Below, piece after piece: positions 283-41,970 of a DNA stretch of 64,000 nt. The DNA is from Engelhardtia mirabilis (GTDB taxonomy: Bacteria; Planctomycetota; UBA1135; GCA-002686595): NCBI GenBank assembly GCA_007751255.1, contig CP036296.1, positions 4,464,001-4,528,000 of the forward strand. The letters are read 5' to 3'. The notes beneath the pieces were generated by a model, which was not told where the DNA came from, made no database searches, and was given only the letters and a program-made list of their open reading frames with translations. The position numbers were made by a program, and so were the translations under genes. How positions within the stretch are numbered: position 1 is the stretch's first letter; each line of letters begins with the position of its first letter.

Positions 283-297
283 TGGCACGGTGCTTGC
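283..297 (+). promoter_or_regulatory. Sigma54 (RpoN) promoter
   Basis: TGGCACG-GTGC-TTGC matches the -24/-12 consensus TGGCACG-N4-TTGC at all 11 defined positions, with GG at 284-285 and GC at 296-297. The expected transcription start is about 309. This leaves a 42-nt leader with a GGAAGA Shine-Dalgarno-like stretch at 339-344 before the ATG at 351. Confidence 0.8.
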
Positions 298-34290: not shown

Positions 34291-37200
34291 TCAGTCGATA
34301 GCTGACGCGTCCCCGCCGACCTCCTCACGCCACTCCTTGATGCGCTGGTAGACCTTGGCGCGCGAGATGCCGAGCAGGCGCGCCGCCTCGCGCTTGTCGC
34401 CGCCGGTCTGGGCCACGGCGCGCTCGATGGCGGCGCGCTCGATCTCTGCCATGGTCGGGATCGGACCGGTCGCAGGGATGACCGCAGCGCCCAGGGTCGG
34501 CTCCCCCACCAGCGACGGATCGTCGATCTCGCCCTCGCTCAGGACGCACAGGCGCCGCACTTCATTGCGCAGTTCACGCACGTTGCCCGGCCAGGGGCGG
34601 CGCGTGAGGCGCTCCAGGACTGCGGAGGAGACGTGACGGCGCTCGCCCGTGCTGGCGGCCAAGAGCGTCAGGAAGTGCTCGACGAGCTCGGGGATGTCCT
34701 CGGCGCGCTCGGCCAGGGAGGGCAGCCGCACCTCGATCCCGCCAATGCGGTAGTAGAGGTCCTGTCGGAAGCTCCCGGCGCCCACCGCGGCCTCCAGGTC
34801 CCGGTGCGTCGCCGTGACGAGGCGGAAGTCGACGCTGCGCTCGTCCCCGTCGCCCAGGCGCCTGACCCGGCGGGTCTCGAGCACGCGCAGGAGCTTGGCC
34901 TGGAGCTCGAGGGGCATCTCGCCGATCTCGTCCAGGAACAGCGTGCCACCGTGCGCGCGCTCGAACAGGCCGGCGCGGTCGGTATCCGCGCCGGTGAACG
35001 CGCCACGGCGGTAGCCGAACAGCTCCGACTCGATCAGCGACGCCGGCAGGGCAGCGACGTTCTCGCTGACGAAGGCGGCGGCGTGGCGCTCGGACTGCTC
35101 GTGGACTGCGCGAGCCGCCAACTCCTTGCCCGTCCCACTCTCGCCGCGCAGCAGCACCGGCATCCCGCTGGGTGCTGCCTTGGAGATCAGCGCCCGCACC
35201 GTCTCGATCGACTTCGAGCTGCCCACGAGCCCGCTTCCGGGCGACTCGAGGCCACGGTCCTGCAAGGCCTTGCGCGCGGCCTCCAGGTCGCGCTCCTGCC
35301 TCACGACACGCTCGGAGAGTCGCTTGTTCAGGTCGTGGATCTGCTCGCGCCGACGCAGTTGCCCGACCGCGAGGGCGGCCTGGTCCGCCAACAGCCCGAG
35401 CAGTCGCTCGGCCCGCGGACCGAAGGCGCCCGTCCGCAGGCGATGGTCGACGACCACCACGCCGCGCAGGTCCTCGGTGGCCCGGAAGGGCGCGCACAGG
35501 ATCGAGCGCAGCTCGTGCTCGACGATCGACGGCGCGCGGCCGCGCTCGGGATCGTCGGCGGCGTTGGACACGTTGAGGGTCTTCATGCTCGCCAGGGCCT
35601 CGCCCACGATCGAGGTGCTGACCGAAACGTCGCTGGCGGCCACGTCACCCCTCGCGAACTCCGTGGCCGCGTCGAGGCGCAGCTGCCCGCCTTCCTCGAG
35701 CACCAGGAAGCCGCGCTCGGCGCCGGTCACCTGGCAGGCGCTATCGACGATCTCCGTCAACAGGCCGTCGAGGTCCTCCTGACCCGCGAGCCGGTGGTTC
35801 AACGCGAGCAGTTGCATGATCTCCATTTCGAGTTCCTCGTCGTCGGTGGCCGAGCCGCTGCGCTCATCGAGATCGCGGGGGCGGGGGTCTGGAAGGTTCA
35901 ACAGGGTCCGGCGCAGGGCAAAACGCTCGCGCTGCGAGAGTCCCACGGCGCAACGCTCGAGGTGATCGCGGGCCTGGGACGCGGCCTCTTCCGCAAGCTC
36001 TGGGTCGTCGCTACGTGCCGCGACTGCGAGCCAGGCGCGCGCCGCTCGATCGTCACGGCCGCGGGATGCCAGCTGGCGGGCCAAGTTGGCGAGGGTCGCG
36101 ACGTCGCCGGCGACCAGGGCGTTCCACAGGGTCAAGTCCTCGGCCAGAAGGCCCGTGGCCCGGTCGTCGCTCTCGACGCCGTCGGTCACGGCGGCCTCGC
36201 CCTCGAGCACTCGAGCGAGGAAGCGGGCCTCGGCCTCGACCGGCACCTGGTCGAGACGGCGCGCCAACTCGGCCCCCCTGCCCACGAAGGCGCGAGCCTC
36301 GGCCGTGTGCCCACGCAACGCAGCGGCGCGGCCCTGATCGAGGAACACTCGCGGATCCACCGCCGCCTCCCCCGAGAGTTCGCTGGAGCCCAAGGGGTCG
36401 CGGCCGATTCGAGCCCGCTGCAGGTCGCTGCGAGCCAAGAGCAGCGGCGCGCTGAGTCGACGTTGTCCCGCAGACAGGCCTTCGACCGCGCGCTCCAGGT
36501 CGGCGATGGCGGCGCCGGCGTGCCCCCGTTCCGCGGTGAGCAGCGCGAAGAGTCCGCGCAGGGTCGCGGCACCGGCCTCGTCCCCCAAGCGCTCTCGCAC
36601 CGCCAGGGCGCGCGCCAATTCGGGCTCCGCCGCCATCAGGTCGCCACCCTCGCGCAGCGCGCCGCCGAGTTGACCGCGGGCGTTGGCCTCATTCGCGATC
36701 CGGCCGGCACTACGCAGCGCCGCGGCCGCACTGGCGAAGAGCGCGATCGAGCGCCCGTGGCTGCCCGTGCGGCGCTCGATCGTCGCCAGGTTCATGGAGA
36801 GCGTCCCGACCGCCGCGTCGTCACCCCGCGCGCAGGCCTCGGCCAGCCATTGGTCGAGTTCGGAACGCGCCGCGTCGACCTGTCCGCGCCGACCGCGCGC
36901 CACCGCGCGCAGGCGACCGAGGTCGCACCAGGTCCGCCAGGCCGTCCGGTCGCCGGTGCCGTCGTCGAAACGCTGAAGCCTGTCGACCCGCTCGATCAGG
37001 GCCGCATCCTCGCCGCGCGCGAACTCCATCTGGACGCGCCCCAACTCGGCCTCCAGGCGCACGCCTGGATCCAGCTCGACCGCCCGATCGAAGTGCGCCG
37101 AAGCGCGCGGTTCGTCGTGCACGATGCGCGCGATCTGCGCCCGCGCCAGTTCGCCGCGAGCCTGCCCCGGGGCATCCGACGGCCTGTAGGCGCCCAGGGC

Positions 37201-39210
37201 ATCCGCGGCCTGACGCGCGTCACCCAACTGCGCCCAGCACAGGGCCCGCTCCACCGCCAAGTCGGCCGGCGCGTCGTCCCCCGCCAGACTCTCCAGGACG
37301 TGAAGCCCCGCCAGGGCGAACTCCGGCGAGCCCGAGTCGCGCAACTCGTGCAGCTGCTCGTGCCACTCGGCCAGCAGGACGTCGTCCTGTCCAACCGATC
37401 GCGCCAGCCAGCGCAGGTGCCAGGTGGCCGCGCGCGACGCTCCCTGGCTGTCGAGCACGTCGCTCCAGCGGCGGGCGATCATCTGCCGTCGACCCCGATC
37501 GAGGAGCCCGATCGCGTCGACGTCCCTGACCAACGCCACTTCGCCCCCCTCCCAGCGCACCCAGCGACTCGAACTCAAGTGCGCCAGCCGGGTCGCGACC
37601 GTGGACAGCGCTGCTCCCACGACCTGCGCGAGCGCGTCGAGTCGACAACTACCCGGCACCATGGCCAGGGCCAAGAGGATCTCGCGCAGCCCCTCCTCCG
37701 CAGGCGGGTCGAGGTCTGTCTCCGACCAGCGCGCCAGGTCGGGCAGGGGTCCAGGTCGCAAGCGCCAACGGTCGCCGCCATCCACGATCCAACCCTCGTG
37801 CTGCGCGCGGCGCAGGAGCCGCTCGATTGCGGCGGGCGCGCCCTTCGAAGCGCGCACCAGCTGGTCGGCCAGGCGCTCGAGTCGTTCTTGTGAGCCGGCG
37901 TCCAGCAGGTCGTCGAGATGCTCGGCGAGCTCGCGAGCACGCACGGCCGGTGCGTGCTCCACGCGCCATCCGCTGGCCCCCTGTCCGAGGGCTGTGCCGA
38001 CCACGAGCAGCCGCGCGTCGCCGCCGGACTGCTTCCTGGATCGTGCGAGACGGTCCACGGCCGCTGCGGCCAAGGCACTCGGCTCGTCCATGCTGACCGC
38101 GAGCCAGCGTCGACCCAGATCGCTCGCGTGTCCGGCGGCCCAGTGGTCCATGGCCGCGCCGTTCCCGAGTGCCGCCAGCTCGCCGGACAACTCGAGCGCG
38201 TCGAGCTCGATGCCGGCGATCGTCGCGCGCAGCCGGAGGGCCTCGAGCACCGCGCGCGGGTCGTCGCCCGCGGGCAGGGCAATGGCCAGGGCCTCGTGCG
38301 GCGCGGGCTCGAAGCCGTCGACGATCCAACGCAGGAAGGCCTCGCGGCCGAGGCTCGTCGGAACCCGCAGGGGCGCAAGAATGGACGCGCCCGCTTCGAG
38401 GCCGAGCCGCGTGCGCAGCGCCCTTCCGACGGCGGCCGCGCCCGCCGGCCGCGCCTCCGGGCGCCGGGCCACCAGGGCTTCGACGGTCTCGCGAGCCCAA
38501 TCGGGCAGGTCGTCGACGCTCGTCCCGGACGCTTCGAGGAACGGTCGCGACGGGAACTGCGAGTAGAACTCGCGCGCGGTGCGCCGCGCGGGCACCAACA
38601 GCTCGTGGGCCAGGGCACCCAGGGCGAAGAGGTCGGCCGCGGGCGAGGGAGGCGAGCCGGCCAGGCGCTCGGGAGCGATGGCGTAGAGGGTCCCCGTTGC
38701 AGCGACGCCGGCGCGCTCCGCGTCGATCGCGCCGGACAGGCCGAAGTCCACCAGCACCGGCCGATCGCCAGCGGTGACCAGCACGTTGACCGCGCTCAGG
38801 TCGCCGTGGGCGAAGCCCGCCCGGTGCAGGGCCTCCAGACCGTCGGTGAGGTCCGCCAGGAGGCGACCGATGGCCTCCGGTGTCCGCCCGCTCGCCCACT
38901 GCTCCAGGGGGATGCCATCGATCCACTCCCGCGCCAGGAAGGTGCGGCCGTCTTCGAGTCGGCCGTGGTCGACCAGGCGGGCCGTGCCCTCGAGCCGCAG
39001 GGTCGAGAGCACCTCCAACTCGGCGGCCGCCTCGGCCAGCGAGGAGTCCGAGACCAGCCTCAACGCCACCTCGTCAGAGCCTCGTCGCGCCCGCCAGACC
39101 TCGGCTCCGTCGCGGCGCGCCATGGGCTCCACAGCCGTGTAGCCCGCCGGCCATGCGGCTTCGGTCGGCTGCTCGCGGGACGGATCGGGTTGGTGGGAGT
39201 CGGGGGCCAT
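34291..39210 (-). CDS. Kinase-like/TPR/GAF/sigma54 enhancer-binding protein
   Basis: A 1639-aa cytoplasmic regulator. In order: a serine/threonine kinase-like domain (about 24-275) with HGDLSAVN (Asp137, Asn142) and VDFGLSG (Asp155), but Arg51 in VALRLV where the ATP-anchoring Lys belongs; a helical region resembling an AAA_16/STAND relative without a P-loop (about 290-500); many TPR-like helices (about 640-1080); a GAF domain (about 1130-1280); a sigma54-interaction AAA+ domain (about 1325-1540) with Walker [10 protein letters not shown], the sigma54-contact GAFTGA and Walker [11 protein letters not shown]; and a Fis-type HTH (about 1590-1630). The sigma54 part looks fully active. The domain order is like PknK/AfsR-type regulators joined to an NtrC-type activator. 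It is divergent from a gene with a sigma54 promoter and dyads, which it probably controls. The N-terminal half probably senses a signal. Confidence 0.85.
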
Positions 39211-39244
39211 GGGGGGCGGATCGGCGGTGGCGGGGGTCTGGATT

Positions 39245-39286
39245 CTGGACTCCGGTCCAGGTGTTGGACCCTGCCGGTAGGTCCAA
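39245..39286. promoter_or_regulatory. Dyads, candidate enhancer for the sigma54 promoter
   Basis: Three interlocking inverted repeats: CTGGAC-N4-GTCCAG (39245-39260), GTCC-N7-GGAC (39255-39269) and TTGGACC-N9-GGTCCAA (39264-39286). They lie about 80-120 bp upstream of the -24 element at 39364, the normal range for NtrC-type enhancers, and between the activator gene and its presumed target. The GTCC-N7-GGAC core recurs twice upstream of the gene at 41383. Confidence 0.65.
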
Positions 39287-39362
39287 AACTCTTACGGCAG
39301 GAACGGGGGATCGCTGGCGGCCAATCACCCCGCTGGGTCGCTGATGGGGTAGACCAAGAGAG

Positions 39363-39377
39363 CGGCACGCAGATTGC
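39363..39377 (+). promoter_or_regulatory. Sigma54 (RpoN) promoter
   Basis: CGGCACG-CAGA-TTGC: GG at 39364-39365 and GC at 39376-39377 with the required spacing. Only the first T of the consensus TGGCACG-N4-TTGC is changed. The expected start is about 39389, giving a 47-nt leader before ATG 39436. Confidence 0.78.
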
Positions 39378-39435
39378 GTGCCATGGAGGATCGCGACCGC
39401 CTCCCGCAGGTCGCGCGACCCAAGGACCCAACACA

Positions 39436-41202
39436 ATGCGACTCTCATTCGCCGCCCTCGCCCTGCTCACGACGACCGCCGCCGCCGACTGGACCCTGTT
39501 CCAGGCGCCCGCGGGTGGTGTGGGAGCAGTCATCGGGGTCGACGATCAGGGGGCGATCGCCGCCGCGCCGGAACTCGCCGACGTGGCCCTGATCGCACTC
39601 GACTTCGTCGGCCGTACCCGAATCGAGCGCTTCGCCGCCGACCGGCCGCGCCACGAGCCCCTGCCGGGGGGAGCCAACCGGCTGGTCCTGCCCCAGGGCC
39701 ATGGCTCGCTCTACGCCTACCGCGGTGGCGCGGGCGCCCAGACCCACTTCGGCCTGTTCCGGGTCACGCCGACGGGCGCACCGCAGCTGCTCCTGGACCT
39801 GCCCGGGATCGGTGCGACCGGCGATGCGCCGCCCTTCTCGCCCCGCATCGCCTGCGCCCCCGACGGCACGGCGATCCTGATCGCGACCGAGGTCGGCGCC
39901 GGCGGTGACCTGCTCGAGATCGACCTGCTCACAGCCGTCGCCGAGAACCGCAGTGCTTCGCTCGCGCCGATGGACTTCGAGCTGGAGGGGCTAGCCCTCT
40001 TCTCGACCTGGGGCGTGGCCCTCGATGCCGGTGGAGCCAATCGCTTCCAACGCGCGCCCGGCGCCCAACTCCAAACGGTGGCGGTGGAGGGCGCCACGCC
40101 TGCGTGGTTCGGCGGTCAGGTGGTCGGTTCCGGTGACGGATCGACCGCTGGAGTGCTCGCCGGCGACGGGCCCGATGCGGCGCGCGTCGCGACGTTCGGA
40201 GCAATCGGCACGGCCAAGCTGGCGTCGATGCCGGCCCAAGCCCTCGACGGAGCAGGCTTCCTGCCCGAGGCCGCGGACGGACCGTGGCTGGTGCTGTCCA
40301 GCGACGGCACGCGGGTCGGCTACAGGACTCGCGAACCCAAGCTCGGCGGCGGCCTCACCCGCGAGGTGTGGATGGCCGAGACGGTCAGCGGTGCGACCGC
40401 TGGGCACCTGACTTCGGACGGCAACTTCCTCGACACGATCGACGAGGTGGGCCTGCTGCGCTTCGTTCCGGGCGCGGGCCTGATGTTCGGCGCGGGCGAG
40501 CGCAACAACACGGTCCCTGCGGGACTGGACAACGTCGACCTGTACCTCGCACAGACGGCCGCCGGGGGCACCACGACGATCGTCAACCTGACCCTCAGCT
40601 CGGGCGACGCCGTGGCGCCGTTCCTGACTCCGGCGACGCTCAGCCCGGAGGACGGGCTGTATCGCCTCCCGGGCACCGACTCGATCGTGCTGCACGATGG
40701 CAACGGCGGCGGTGGCCGGCTGCTGGCCAGTGTGCCGCCGTCGACGGGCACCATCACGCTCCTCGCCGACGTCAAGTCCCTGGATGCCGCCACTTGGACG
40801 GGCGACCGGTTGGTGCTCTCGGTCCGCCGCGACCTGAAGCCCAAGCTCGAGCAGCTCGTCAGCGTCGCGCCCGCCAACGGATTGGCAACCCTCGCGACCC
40901 TGCCAGAAGGCACGAGCCTGCTCGGCCTCTCCTCCGCCCCCGACGGCTCCGTCGGAGCGATCATCGACCTGGGCCTGTCCCAGTGGGTCGCCCGGGTGAA
41001 CCCGGCCGCCGGCACCGGCGCCCTCTTGACTCCCATTCCCGCGTCCTGGCTGCCCGTGATCGGCTGGACATCGAACTCGGACCTGCGCGTTTCCCTCGCA
41101 CCATCGTTCCTGCCTGGCGTGCACGTCGAGTGGAGCGTCGCGGGAGCGATCGGCATCGCGCCGTCGCCCGCGATCGCAGGGCAGCTCCTGCCCGCGCTGT
41201 AG
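39436..41202 (+). CDS. Secreted protein under sigma54 control
   Basis: A 588-aa exported protein with a short signal peptide (MRLSFAALALLTTTAAADW). The mature part is a long series of beta-strand segments with Gly-Asp turns (about 20-560), which suggests a beta-propeller of six to eight blades, but I cannot identify a named family. No catalytic motif is evident. It is transcribed divergently from the kinase-like sigma54 activator at 34291-39210. The -24/-12 promoter at 39363-39377 and the GTCC/GGAC dyads between them make it the most likely direct target. The next gene (41383) has the same promoter arrangement. Its surface role is unknown. Confidence 0.7.
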   Translation: MRLSFAALALLTTTAAADWTLFQAPAGGVGAVIGVDDQGAIAAAPELADVALIALDFVGRTRIERFAADRPRHEPLPGGANRLVLPQGHGSLYAYRGGAGAQTHFGLFRVTPTGAPQLLLDLPGIGATGDAPPFSPRIACAPDGTAILIATEVGAGGDLLEIDLLTAVAENRSASLAPMDFELEGLALFSTWGVALDAGGANRFQRAPGAQLQTVAVEGATPAWFGGQVVGSGDGSTAGVLAGDGPDAARVATFGAIGTAKLASMPAQALDGAGFLPEAADGPWLVLSSDGTRVGYRTREPKLGGGLTREVWMAETVSGATAGHLTSDGNFLDTIDEVGLLRFVPGAGLMFGAGERNNTVPAGLDNVDLYLAQTAAGGTTTIVNLTLSSGDAVAPFLTPATLSPEDGLYRLPGTDSIVLHDGNGGGGRLLASVPPSTGTITLLADVKSLDAATWTGDRLVLSVRRDLKPKLEQLVSVAPANGLATLATLPEGTSLLGLSSAPDGSVGAIIDLGLSQWVARVNPAAGTGALLTPIPASWLPVIGWTSNSDLRVSLAPSFLPGVHVEWSVAGAIGIAPSPAIAGQLLPAL

Positions 41203-41206
41203 GGAT

Positions 41207-41246
41207 CGGTCCGGGGCCCGGACCGCCGCGTCCATTTCGCGGACGC
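41207..41246. promoter_or_regulatory. Dyads, candidate enhancer for the second sigma54 promoter
   Basis: CGGTCC-N7-GGACCG at 41207-41225 and GCGTCC-N7-GGACGC at 41228-41246, both containing GTCC-N7-GGAC with identical spacing. A looser GGTCC...GGACC pair follows at 41252-41275. The centres lie about 79 and 58 bp upstream of the -24 element at 41295. The shared core with 39255-39269 suggests the same enhancer-binding protein. Confidence 0.65.
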
Positions 41247-41293: not shown

Positions 41294-41308
41294 TTGGCAC
41301 GGCAGTTG
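41294..41308 (+). promoter_or_regulatory. Sigma54 (RpoN) promoter
   Basis: TGGCACG-GCAG-TTGC matches the consensus at all 11 defined positions. GG lies at 41295-41296 and GC at 41307-41308. The expected start is about 41320, giving a 63-nt leader before ATG 41383. Confidence 0.82.
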
Positions 41309-41382
41309 CCTCAGGTGATTCGGATCGAGGGCGTCTGGAGCGTCGCCCTCGCCATTCCATCCATCCCTGACGAGTCGACACC

Positions 41383-41970
41383 ATGCAAACCACCCTCCTC
41401 GCCCCCATCGCCCTCTTCGTCCTCAGTACCTCGGCCCTGGCCCAGGAAGTGACCTTCACCGGCAAGGTCGAAGACGTCAGCGGCACCACGAACCAGTTCG
41501 TGCTCGGCTGCACCGACACGCAACTGACGAGCGCCTTCTTCAACCTGAACCTCTTCGTCGGCGAGCAGGTCCAGATCACCGGGCAGTGGAACGGTTCCGC
41601 GGCCAACCCTTCGGTCGCGGTAGACGCCATCAGCGTGGTGCCCGAGGTGTTCGAGATCGGCGGCGGCACCAAGATCGGCAAGACCTCGACCCTGGGCTTT
41701 ACCGCCGCGCCGGGTTCGGGGGCCCTGGGCTTCATCTCTCTGAACACGTCCTTCACGCCCTTTGGCGCCGAAGGCGTGATCTTCATCGACCAAAGCCAGA
41801 TCGTGCTGAGCGCCAGCGGCACCGTCGGCGGCGCGGGCGTCCTCCAGATCCCGTTCCAGATTCCGAACAGCCCCGCCCTCGTCGGGCTCGACATCTACGG
41901 CCAAGGGGCCGTTGTCGCGGGCGGACTCGTGAGCCTCACGAACCCCGACTGCAAGACGATCGACAACTGA
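41383..41970 (+). CDS. Small secreted beta-rich protein under sigma54 control
   Basis: A 195-aa exported protein with a typical signal peptide ending TSALAQ. The first half of the mature protein (about 22-90) is a small beta-barrel-like segment (VTFTGKVEDVSGTTNQFVLGC...) reminiscent of OB-fold DUF5666 proteins. The second half (about 92-190) is a version of the C-terminal beta domain found in other exported proteins of the window (IGKTSTLGFTAAPGSG ... PNSPALVGLDIYGQG). Expression should depend on the sigma54 promoter at 41294-41308. It is not preceded by another gene in its unit. A 9-bp-stem hairpin lies 46 bp after the stop. Confidence 0.72.
   Translation: MQTTLLAPIALFVLSTSALAQEVTFTGKVEDVSGTTNQFVLGCTDTQLTSAFFNLNLFVGEQVQITGQWNGSAANPSVAVDAISVVPEVFEIGGGTKIGKTSTLGFTAAPGSGALGFISLNTSFTPFGAEGVIFIDQSQIVLSASGTVGGAGVLQIPFQIPNSPALVGLDIYGQGAVVAGGLVSLTNPDCKTIDN

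What the first reader, a model, noticed from the sequence alone, without database searches (positions are those of the whole stretch)
39245..39435. Sigma54 promoter plus dyads between the activator gene and a divergent secreted-protein gene
CGGCACG-CAGA-TTGC has correct -24/-12 spacing, with the dyads CTGGAC-N4-GTCCAG, GTCC-N7-GGAC and TTGGACC-N9-GGTCCAA 80-120 bp upstream. This is the standard enhancer/promoter arrangement, placed next to the gene for the likely activator.
Basis: partly seen in the sequence, partly recalled or inferred. Interest (0 to 1): 0.85.

Follow-up and report, generated by a model that had tools for sequence, protein, structure and literature searches.

The report
Sigma-54 switch controlling secreted propeller proteins
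In this little-studied group of bacteria, a large regulator protein appears to sit on paired DNA sites and switch on, through the special transcription factor sigma-54, both its own gene and a scattered set of genes for secreted proteins, many of them beta-propellers.

Summary
The -24/-12 site 39363-39377 has counterparts in relatives and the genome has two rpoN genes. Comparing 23 divergent intergenic regions (Planctomycetota) shows the likely enhancer: two tandem 15-mers GTCCA-N5-TGGAC, 19-22 bp apart (22 of 23 regions, loose match). In the window: 39236-39250 and 39255-39269. Missed: a second sigma-54 site on the minus strand (39383-39369), facing and overlapping the first, aimed at the activator gene. 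8 of 13 regions with a plus site have such a partner, at varying span; of 21 near-consensus sites in this genome only this one does. Genome-wide, 8 of 21 tandem pairs have a sigma-54 site 76-127 bp on (background 0.015 per slot); 7 of these 8 front signal-peptide-like genes, 5 of 8 beta-propellers; one is 41383 in the window. Two targets each recur in one other genus. Most likely: an autoregulated NtrC-type activator with a kinase-like N-terminus running a secreted-protein regulon, parallel to PEP-CTERM/PrsR. Binding and transcription are untested.

The parts
34291..39210 (-). activator gene, 1639 aa: kinase-like domain, sub-threshold TPR match, GAF, Sigma54_activat AAA+, Fis HTH
   Evidence: Pfam; GESGTGKE 1356, GAFTGA 1403, GGTLFLDEI 1421, FRQDLYYR 1481; only full-length copy in the genome
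39236..39250 (.). enhancer site A, GTCTGGATTCTGGAC (2 mismatches to GTCCA-N5-TGGAC)
   Evidence: partner at 19 bp, as in the relatives
39255..39269 (.). enhancer site B, GTCCAGGTGTTGGAC (exact)
   Evidence: a site within 2 mismatches in 22 of 22 other regions (shuffle mean 2.58)
   Evidence: L065 has the same N4 junction between two exact sites
39363..39377 (+). sigma-54 -24/-12 site for the propeller gene, CGGCACGCAGATTGC; start inferred near 39389
39369..39383 (-). facing sigma-54 -24/-12 site aimed at the activator gene, TGGCACGCAATCTGC; start inferred near 39357
39436..41202 (+). divergent gene, 588 aa, signal peptide by eye, beta-propeller-like fold
   Evidence: homologs in relatives; pLDDT 86.9, all beta; Foldseek hits such as sortilin and DPP IV, TM-scores 0.45 or less
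41209..41223 (.). enhancer site of the second arrangement, GTCCGGGGCCCGGAC
41230..41244 (.). enhancer site, GTCCATTTCGCGGAC, 21 bp after the previous one
41295..41309 (+). sigma-54 site TGGCACGGCAGTTGC, outer site 86 bp upstream
41383..41970 (+). 195-aa protein gene with signal-peptide-like start, second target in the window
   Evidence: (no Pfam family)

Best explanation
The region is the control region of an autoregulated sigma-54 divergon and the home site of a regulon. Two 15-bp palindromic sites (GTCCA-N5-TGGAC), about two helical turns apart, bind the Fis-type HTH of the adjacent activator, probably as two dimers that seed its AAA+ hexamer. Bound activator loops to RNA polymerase-sigma-54 parked on either of two facing, overlapping -24/-12 elements. 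Polymerase in one orientation transcribes the secreted beta-propeller gene, in the other the activator gene; since the elements overlap, only one can be occupied at a time. For the activator gene the sites lie downstream of the start, inside its leader, so a bound activator could also act as a roadblock there. The same paired sites plus a sigma-54 element (outer site 86-88 bp before -24 in 5 of 8 cases) switch on dispersed genes, mostly for signal-peptide proteins and many of them beta-propellers, with a redox/multihaem-cytochrome pair and probably a glycosyltransferase. Shown by sequence: sites, pairing, spacing, facing promoters, conservation, rpoN, activator motifs, the regulon pattern. Inferred: that this activator binds them, that both promoters work, mutual exclusion, and the signal (GAF and kinase-like domain).
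For: Sites: within 1 mismatch in 20 of 22 other upstream regions (shuffle mean 0.21); tandem pair at 18-22 bp (one site within 2 mismatches, the other within 3) in 22 of 23 regions; 26 site pairs at 18-22 bp where shuffles give about 0.45. GTCCANANTNTGGAC in 20 genomes that carry the activator: 7 sites in 7 genomes, 0 in the reversed control, 6 of the 7 at the activator's own start. Activator motifs intact, HTH helix well conserved. Promoters: plus site in 13 of 23, minus site in 12 of 23, shuffle means 0.38 and 0.34; 8 of 13 plus sites have a facing minus site, null mean 0.49, largest 5 in 2000; 1 of 21 YGGCACG-N4-TTGC sites of this genome (this one) and 0 of 10 regulon promoters (7 own, 3 from relatives; two of them also among the 21). 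Spans 19, 26, 28 (four times), 32, 36 bp with GG-N10-GC fixed in each half speak for two promoters, not one operator. Regulon: 21 tandem pairs in the genome against 9 for the reversed pattern, 8 of 21 with a sigma-54 site at 76-127 bp, background 0.015 per slot. Members. Orthologous targets elsewhere: redox protein in Pla163 (55% identity, 597 aa), glycosyltransferase in G009 (54%, 380 aa). RpoN boxes in both rpoN genes.
Against: No binding or transcript data. The genome has 15 other clear hits to the activator's AAA+ region and three partial ones, any of which could in principle read some of these sites. 10 of 23 regions lack a plus site and 11 lack a minus site at the threshold, and five regions with a plus site (L062, L067, L088, L090, L102) have no facing partner. 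GTCCA-N5-TGGAC as such is not enriched in the genome, and the stricter GTCCANANTNTGGAC is absent from 13 of the 20 genomes, this one included. The background comes from the window and 29 mostly coding loci, not from intergenic DNA. In seven other genomes the tandem pattern has 79 places (control 17), listed only in part; those seen look mostly like coding matches. Of six places fetched from relatives two show sites plus sigma-54 plus gene, one shows sites plus a secreted gene with only a weak -12, one has a sigma-54 site but no clear gene, two show nothing. Member 4781096 has only a -12 of TTGA, seen by eye; members 121411 and 181121 rest on sites with two mismatches.
Confidence: 0.78

Rival explanations
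1. The plus promoter is real but the minus-strand site is a by-product of symmetry in the sigma-54 consensus; the activator gene has an ordinary promoter elsewhere.
For: The consensus is partly self-complementary; 5 of 13 regions with a plus site have no facing partner; bidirectional bacterial promoters caused by symmetry are described for Escherichia coli (PMC12825309: start of the abstract in a search listing, and a term search that found none of the sigma-54 terms).
Against: With the plus site kept and the flanks shuffled letter by letter the mean is 0.49 of 13, observed 8; 1 of 21 YGGCACG-N4-TTGC sites of this genome, only this one, has a partner, and 0 of 10 regulon promoters; the minus copy carries a full TGGCACG in L025, L056, L057, L058, L063, L073 and L106 and scores as well as or better than the plus copy there, and three regions (L068, L073, L106) have a minus site at 9.5 or more where the best plus score is 8.0 or less.
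Confidence: 0.2
2. The paired sites are read by another regulator (another activator, or a repressor of the propeller genes), and the neighbouring activator gene is just one of its targets.
For: 15 other clear activator hits in the genome; palindromic 15-mers fit many dimeric regulators.
Against: Where the near-perfect site occurs (7 of 20 genomes, once each) it lies at the activator's own start in 6 of 7; conserved Fis HTH helix; the sites keep to the upstream side of sigma-54 promoters at enhancer distance.
Confidence: 0.12
3. GGCACGC-N5-GCGTGCC (39364-39382) is a single palindromic operator or RNA hairpin, not promoters.
For: It is a perfect 7-8 bp dyad in the window.
Against: In relatives the span between halves varies from 19 to 36 bp while GG-N10-GC within each half is constant (the scan required that spacing); no Rfam match at gathering score in the window.
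Confidence: 0.05
4. Chance matches in GC-rich DNA.
For: Single dyads are common in this window.
Against: Shuffle and reversed-pattern controls.
Confidence: 0.02

Closest known systems
PEP-CTERM/PrsR sigma-54 regulon of Proteobacteria (PMC1569441; passages seen)
   Same: A Fis-family sigma-54 activator, a conserved activator motif plus -24/-12 site before many dispersed single genes for exported proteins, glycosyltransferases near by, a TPR component, and here too a shared C-terminal domain in several targets
   Different: Activator is one protein with kinase-like and GAF parts (and a sub-threshold TPR match), not PrsK/PrsR/PrsT; below the curated cut-off of TIGR02915 (281.1 against 502.6 bits); site is a pair of GTCCA-N5-TGGAC; targets are often beta-propellers; bidirectional home promoter
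NtrC/NifA-type bacterial enhancer-binding proteins
   Same: AAA+ with GAFTGA, Fis HTH, GAF, upstream palindromes, -24/-12 promoters
   Different: N-terminal kinase-like domain with Arg for the VAIK Lys; below the cut-off of each of the 25 NCBIfam families shown of 47
Bidirectional promoters of Escherichia coli (PMC12825309: start of the abstract in a listing, plus a term search)
   Same: Pseudo-symmetric DNA that can seat polymerase in two orientations
   Different: Here the symmetric elements are -24/-12 of sigma-54 with variable span; the paper's main text holds none of the sigma-54 terms searched
Sigma-54 as controller of the bacterial exterior (PMC3162934, passages)
   Same: Targets act at the cell surface or outside
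   Different: The passages name polysaccharides, flagella, LPS, lipoproteins and peptidoglycan; the term planctomyc does not occur in its main text

Membership tests
sigma-54 (-24/-12) promoter | GG-N10-GC with TGGCAC/TTGC elements | tested here: met
   plus 39363-39377 and minus 39383-39369, each one letter off TGGCACG-N4-TTGC
sigma-54 (-24/-12) promoter | rpoN in the genome | tested here: met
   two PF04552 hits, RpoN boxes ARRTVTKYR and ARRTVAKYR
sigma-54 (-24/-12) promoter | 5' end 12 bp downstream, loss in rpoN mutant | not testable with these tools
   needs RNA and mutants
NtrC-type enhancer-binding protein | AAA+ with Walker A, Walker B, GAFTGA, arginine finger | tested here: met
   PF00158 221.5 bits; motifs located
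NtrC-type enhancer-binding protein | C-terminal Fis-type HTH | tested here: met
   PF02954 38.1 bits; the helix is recognisable in 20 of 20 rows shown, with some substitutions
NtrC-type enhancer-binding protein | palindromic sites upstream of its promoters | tested here: met
   sites present; binding itself not tested
active Hanks-type Ser/Thr kinase | glycine loop and VAIK lysine | tested here: not met
   Arg in place of the Lys in 18 of 18 aligned, no glycine loop seen by eye; HxDL and DFG mostly kept
PEP-CTERM/PrsR system | activator passes TIGR02915 | tested here: not met
   281.1 bits, cut-off 502.6
PEP-CTERM/PrsR system | targets carry PEP-CTERM and the genome an exosortase | not tested
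   not searched
bidirectional promoter | elements for both directions overlapping | tested here: met
   by sequence only; transcription in both directions not testable

The most novel reading that the evidence does not exclude
A family-wide planctomycete circuit in which an activator with a pseudokinase-like N-terminus controls a fold-biased regulon of secreted beta-propellers, and in which its own control region is a bidirectional sigma-54 promoter: two facing, mutually exclusive -24/-12 elements served by one enhancer pair, upstream for the target and inside the leader for the activator.
Probability: 0.5. Interest if true: 0.72.

Novelty: new variant of a known kind. Interest (0 to 1): 0.6.

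Why it matters
It gives an activator family a binding site, a promoter geometry and a target list, so the function of a set of secreted planctomycete propeller proteins becomes testable through one regulator. A facing pair of sigma-54 promoters is a clean case for asking how a polymerase that waits for an activator is shared between two directions. I saw no paper on facing sigma-54 pairs or on this regulon in the listings (open-licence library only, top rows listed).

Tried and rejected
Single-site statistics: GTCCA-N5-TGGAC and GTCC-N7-GGAC are not enriched in the genome or window, and the three-half-site pattern was below its control (10 forward and 11 reverse against 17 and 19); only pairing, conservation and the sigma-54 neighbour carry weight. 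A strict long-palindrome pattern (28 to 40 bp) over 61 family genomes gave one hit, inside a helicase-like (PriA-like, recalled) coding frame: chance. That pattern could not match the window's own 19-bp form and found none of the relatives' pairs in the genomes it searched. I looked at helical phasing of the home sites against the promoter by eye and dropped it; no phasing is claimed. The target 41383 protein has a sub-threshold NCBIfam match (16.5 bits, cut-off 204.3) to a toxin B subunit over its first 67 residues; I take it as a chance match. Homologs of the 195-aa gene near other activators: none in the loci searched. Dropped rows: of 27 upstream regions 4 (L061, L064, L066, L093) were left out of the 23 because no divergent propeller gene was found there (L064 has it in the same direction as the activator). 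L062 and L088 are close relatives by eye, so the 23 are not all independent. The ends of the regions at the propeller gene were set by hand and are not at a start codon in 15 of 23; I did not measure how far off each is. Ten partial-match loci (L074-L083) were not used for the footprint. The intergenic DNA was not aligned.

Full report
Observation. The sigma-54 site 39363-39377 has GG-N10-GC spacing. YGGCACG-N4-TTGC occurs 3 times in the window where 0.09 are expected, and 21 times in the genome against 6 for the reversed pattern.

The activator. The 1639-aa product of 34291-39210 has a protein-kinase-like domain, GAF, Sigma54_activat and Fis HTH domains and a sub-threshold TPR match, with [23 protein letters not shown] and FRQDLYYR intact. 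It is the only full-length copy in the genome. 43 of 101 searched genomes (own included) have a match at E <= 1e-100; 58 have none. In 18 of 18 aligned orthologs the VAIK lysine is arginine and by eye no glycine loop is seen, so I call the N-terminus kinase-like, perhaps a pseudokinase. The closest relatives are Planctomycetota by most record titles (a few say only 'bacterium'); one is Pla163, CP036290.1, a complete chromosome.

Footprint. From 27 upstream regions of orthologs (20 with flanks, own included, and 7) I kept 23 with the divergent propeller gene. 17 orthologs aligned over the N-terminal 1300 residues are 31-39% identical to the window's protein, so shared short motifs are informative. 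Using a pattern taken from the window alone, GTCCA-N5-TGGAC is exact in 12, within one mismatch in 20 and within two in 22 of the other 22 regions; shuffle means are 0.01, 0.21 and 2.58. 22 of 23 regions have a pair of sites 18-22 bp apart, one within two and the other within three mismatches; L057 is the exception. Shuffles give about 0.45 pairs at 18-22 bp per 23 regions, observed 26 with up to three mismatches per site. In the window the pair is 39236-39250 and 39255-39269. In 20 genomes with the activator, GTCCANANTNTGGAC occurs 7 times in 7 genomes, 0 in the reversed control, and 6 of the 7 lie at the activator's own start; 13 genomes, this one included, have none.

Facing promoters. A plus-strand sigma-54 site stands in 13 of 23 regions and a minus-strand site in 12 of 23; shuffle means are 0.38 and 0.34, largest 2 and 3 in 200. 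8 of the 13 have a facing partner at a span of 19 (window), 26, 28 (four times), 32 or 36 bp; with the flanks shuffled letter by letter the mean is 0.49 and the largest 5 in 2000. In the 28-bp form the two -12 elements abut (TTGC next to GCA). By eye L059 has a further 28-bp pair with a weak plus half. The constant GG-N10-GC inside each half (required by the scan) and the variable span between halves argue for two promoters. 1 of 21 YGGCACG-N4-TTGC sites in the genome (this locus) and 0 of 10 other regulon promoters have a facing partner. The minus site would start the activator transcript near 39357, placing both enhancer sites inside its leader; this is inferred from the spacing only.

Regulon. 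The tandem pattern GTC-N9-GAC-N4..6-GTC-N9-GAC has 21 places in the genome, 9 for the reversed pattern. All 21 were examined: 8 have a sigma-54 site with the outer enhancer site 76-127 bp upstream, where 0.015 per slot is the background in 172,831 bases (the window and 29 mostly coding loci). These are the window locus (127), window 41209 (86), 1189033 (76), 1973405 (86), 2093110 (86, -12 is TTGT), 4274892 (88), 665904 (77) and 6020036 (87). A ninth pair, 4781096, has only a TTGA -12, by eye. YGGCACG-N4-TTGC sites at 121411 and 181121 have degenerate enhancer sites (two mismatches) at 88, and at 86 and 67. Products of the eight: 588-aa beta-propeller-like protein (AlphaFold pLDDT 86.9; Foldseek hits such as sortilin and DPP IV, TM-scores 0.45 or less), 195-aa secreted protein without family, Reg_prop, PQQ_2, FG-GAP_3, a 460-aa secreted protein without family, a 4Fe-4S/pyridine nucleotide oxidoreductase followed by a multihaem cytochrome gene, and FG-GAP_2. 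Products of the weaker three: a sub-threshold Rax2 propeller (4781096), Sortilin-Vps10 (121411), and a family-28 glycosyltransferase (181121). Signal peptides were judged by eye and a crude hydrophobicity score; that Reg_prop, PQQ_2 and FG-GAP repeats form propellers is from established knowledge. For 665904 and 6020036 the first clear gene starts some 300 bp after the promoter.

Conservation of targets. G009 (L242) has one pair between two outward sigma-54 sites, outer distance 86 on both sides, before the glycosyltransferase ortholog (54% over 380 aa) and a secreted protein. G057 (L241) has a pair before a secreted FG-GAP protein, with only a weak -12 by eye. Three other fetched places gave nothing clear (L239, L240) or a sigma-54 site without a clear gene (L243). 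The seven genomes have 79 forward hits (control 17), listed only in part; 5 were fetched and the rest not examined, and many have the look of coding repeats.

Mechanism and comparison. The closest described system I know is the PEP-CTERM/PrsR regulon (PMC1569441, passages): a sigma-54 activator, a motif upstream of -24/-12, dispersed exported proteins, glycosyltransferases and a TPR protein. Here the inputs are in one protein and the activator is far below the PrsR model's cut-off, so it works like that system but is not filed as a member. Sigma-54 as controller of the exterior is an established idea (PMC3162934, passages). A 2025 survey of sigma-54 regulons across phyla mentions Planctomycetota often but its main text holds neither 'propeller' nor 'bidirectional' (PMC12316311, term search). 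Studholme and Dixon 2004 on Pirellula activators was seen only as a reference; whether it describes kinase-like activators I could not check.

Verdict.

Noticed in passing
window 283-297 (L018): Exact TGGCACG-N4-TTGC shortly before an ORF that looks like a lipoprotein gene; no GTCCA-N5-TGGAC site within two mismatches in the 200 bp upstream.
   Followed up: partly
L013, L010, L008 (own genome 3045441, 941635, 695837): YGGCACG-N4-TTGC sites end 94, 22 and 117 bp before ORFs for Hsp70, a Clp_N/AAA protein and Hsp20: sigma-54 may run a heat-shock set in this planctomycete. A passage of PMC12316311 reports a chaperone cluster enriched in Planctomycetota.
   Followed up: partly
L247 (own genome 5285500-5293000): Another sigma-54 activator hit (5288173-5289105, minus) lies near a secreted Lactonase-type propeller gene with TGGCACGCCCCTTGC: perhaps a second activator-propeller pair with a different enhancer. 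My script did not delimit that activator gene.
   Followed up: partly
own genome, 36 places: A shared C-terminal domain (PLFGG...SNA) ends many proteins, four regulon members or candidates among them (1191233, 2095694, 119857, 1971114); possibly a sorting or surface domain.
   Followed up: no
L001, L002: Two rpoN genes with slightly different RpoN boxes (ARRTVTKYR, ARRTVAKYR); which one serves these promoters is unknown.
   Followed up: no
L096 (same locus as L064): The propeller gene is duplicated: one copy runs toward the activator, the other diverges, each with a sigma-54-like site, and by eye a degenerate GTCCA-type site lies near the divergent copy.
   Followed up: partly
window 41383-41970: The 195-aa protein has a far sub-threshold NCBIfam match to a toxin B subunit (16.5 bits, cut-off 204.3); taken as chance.
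   Followed up: no
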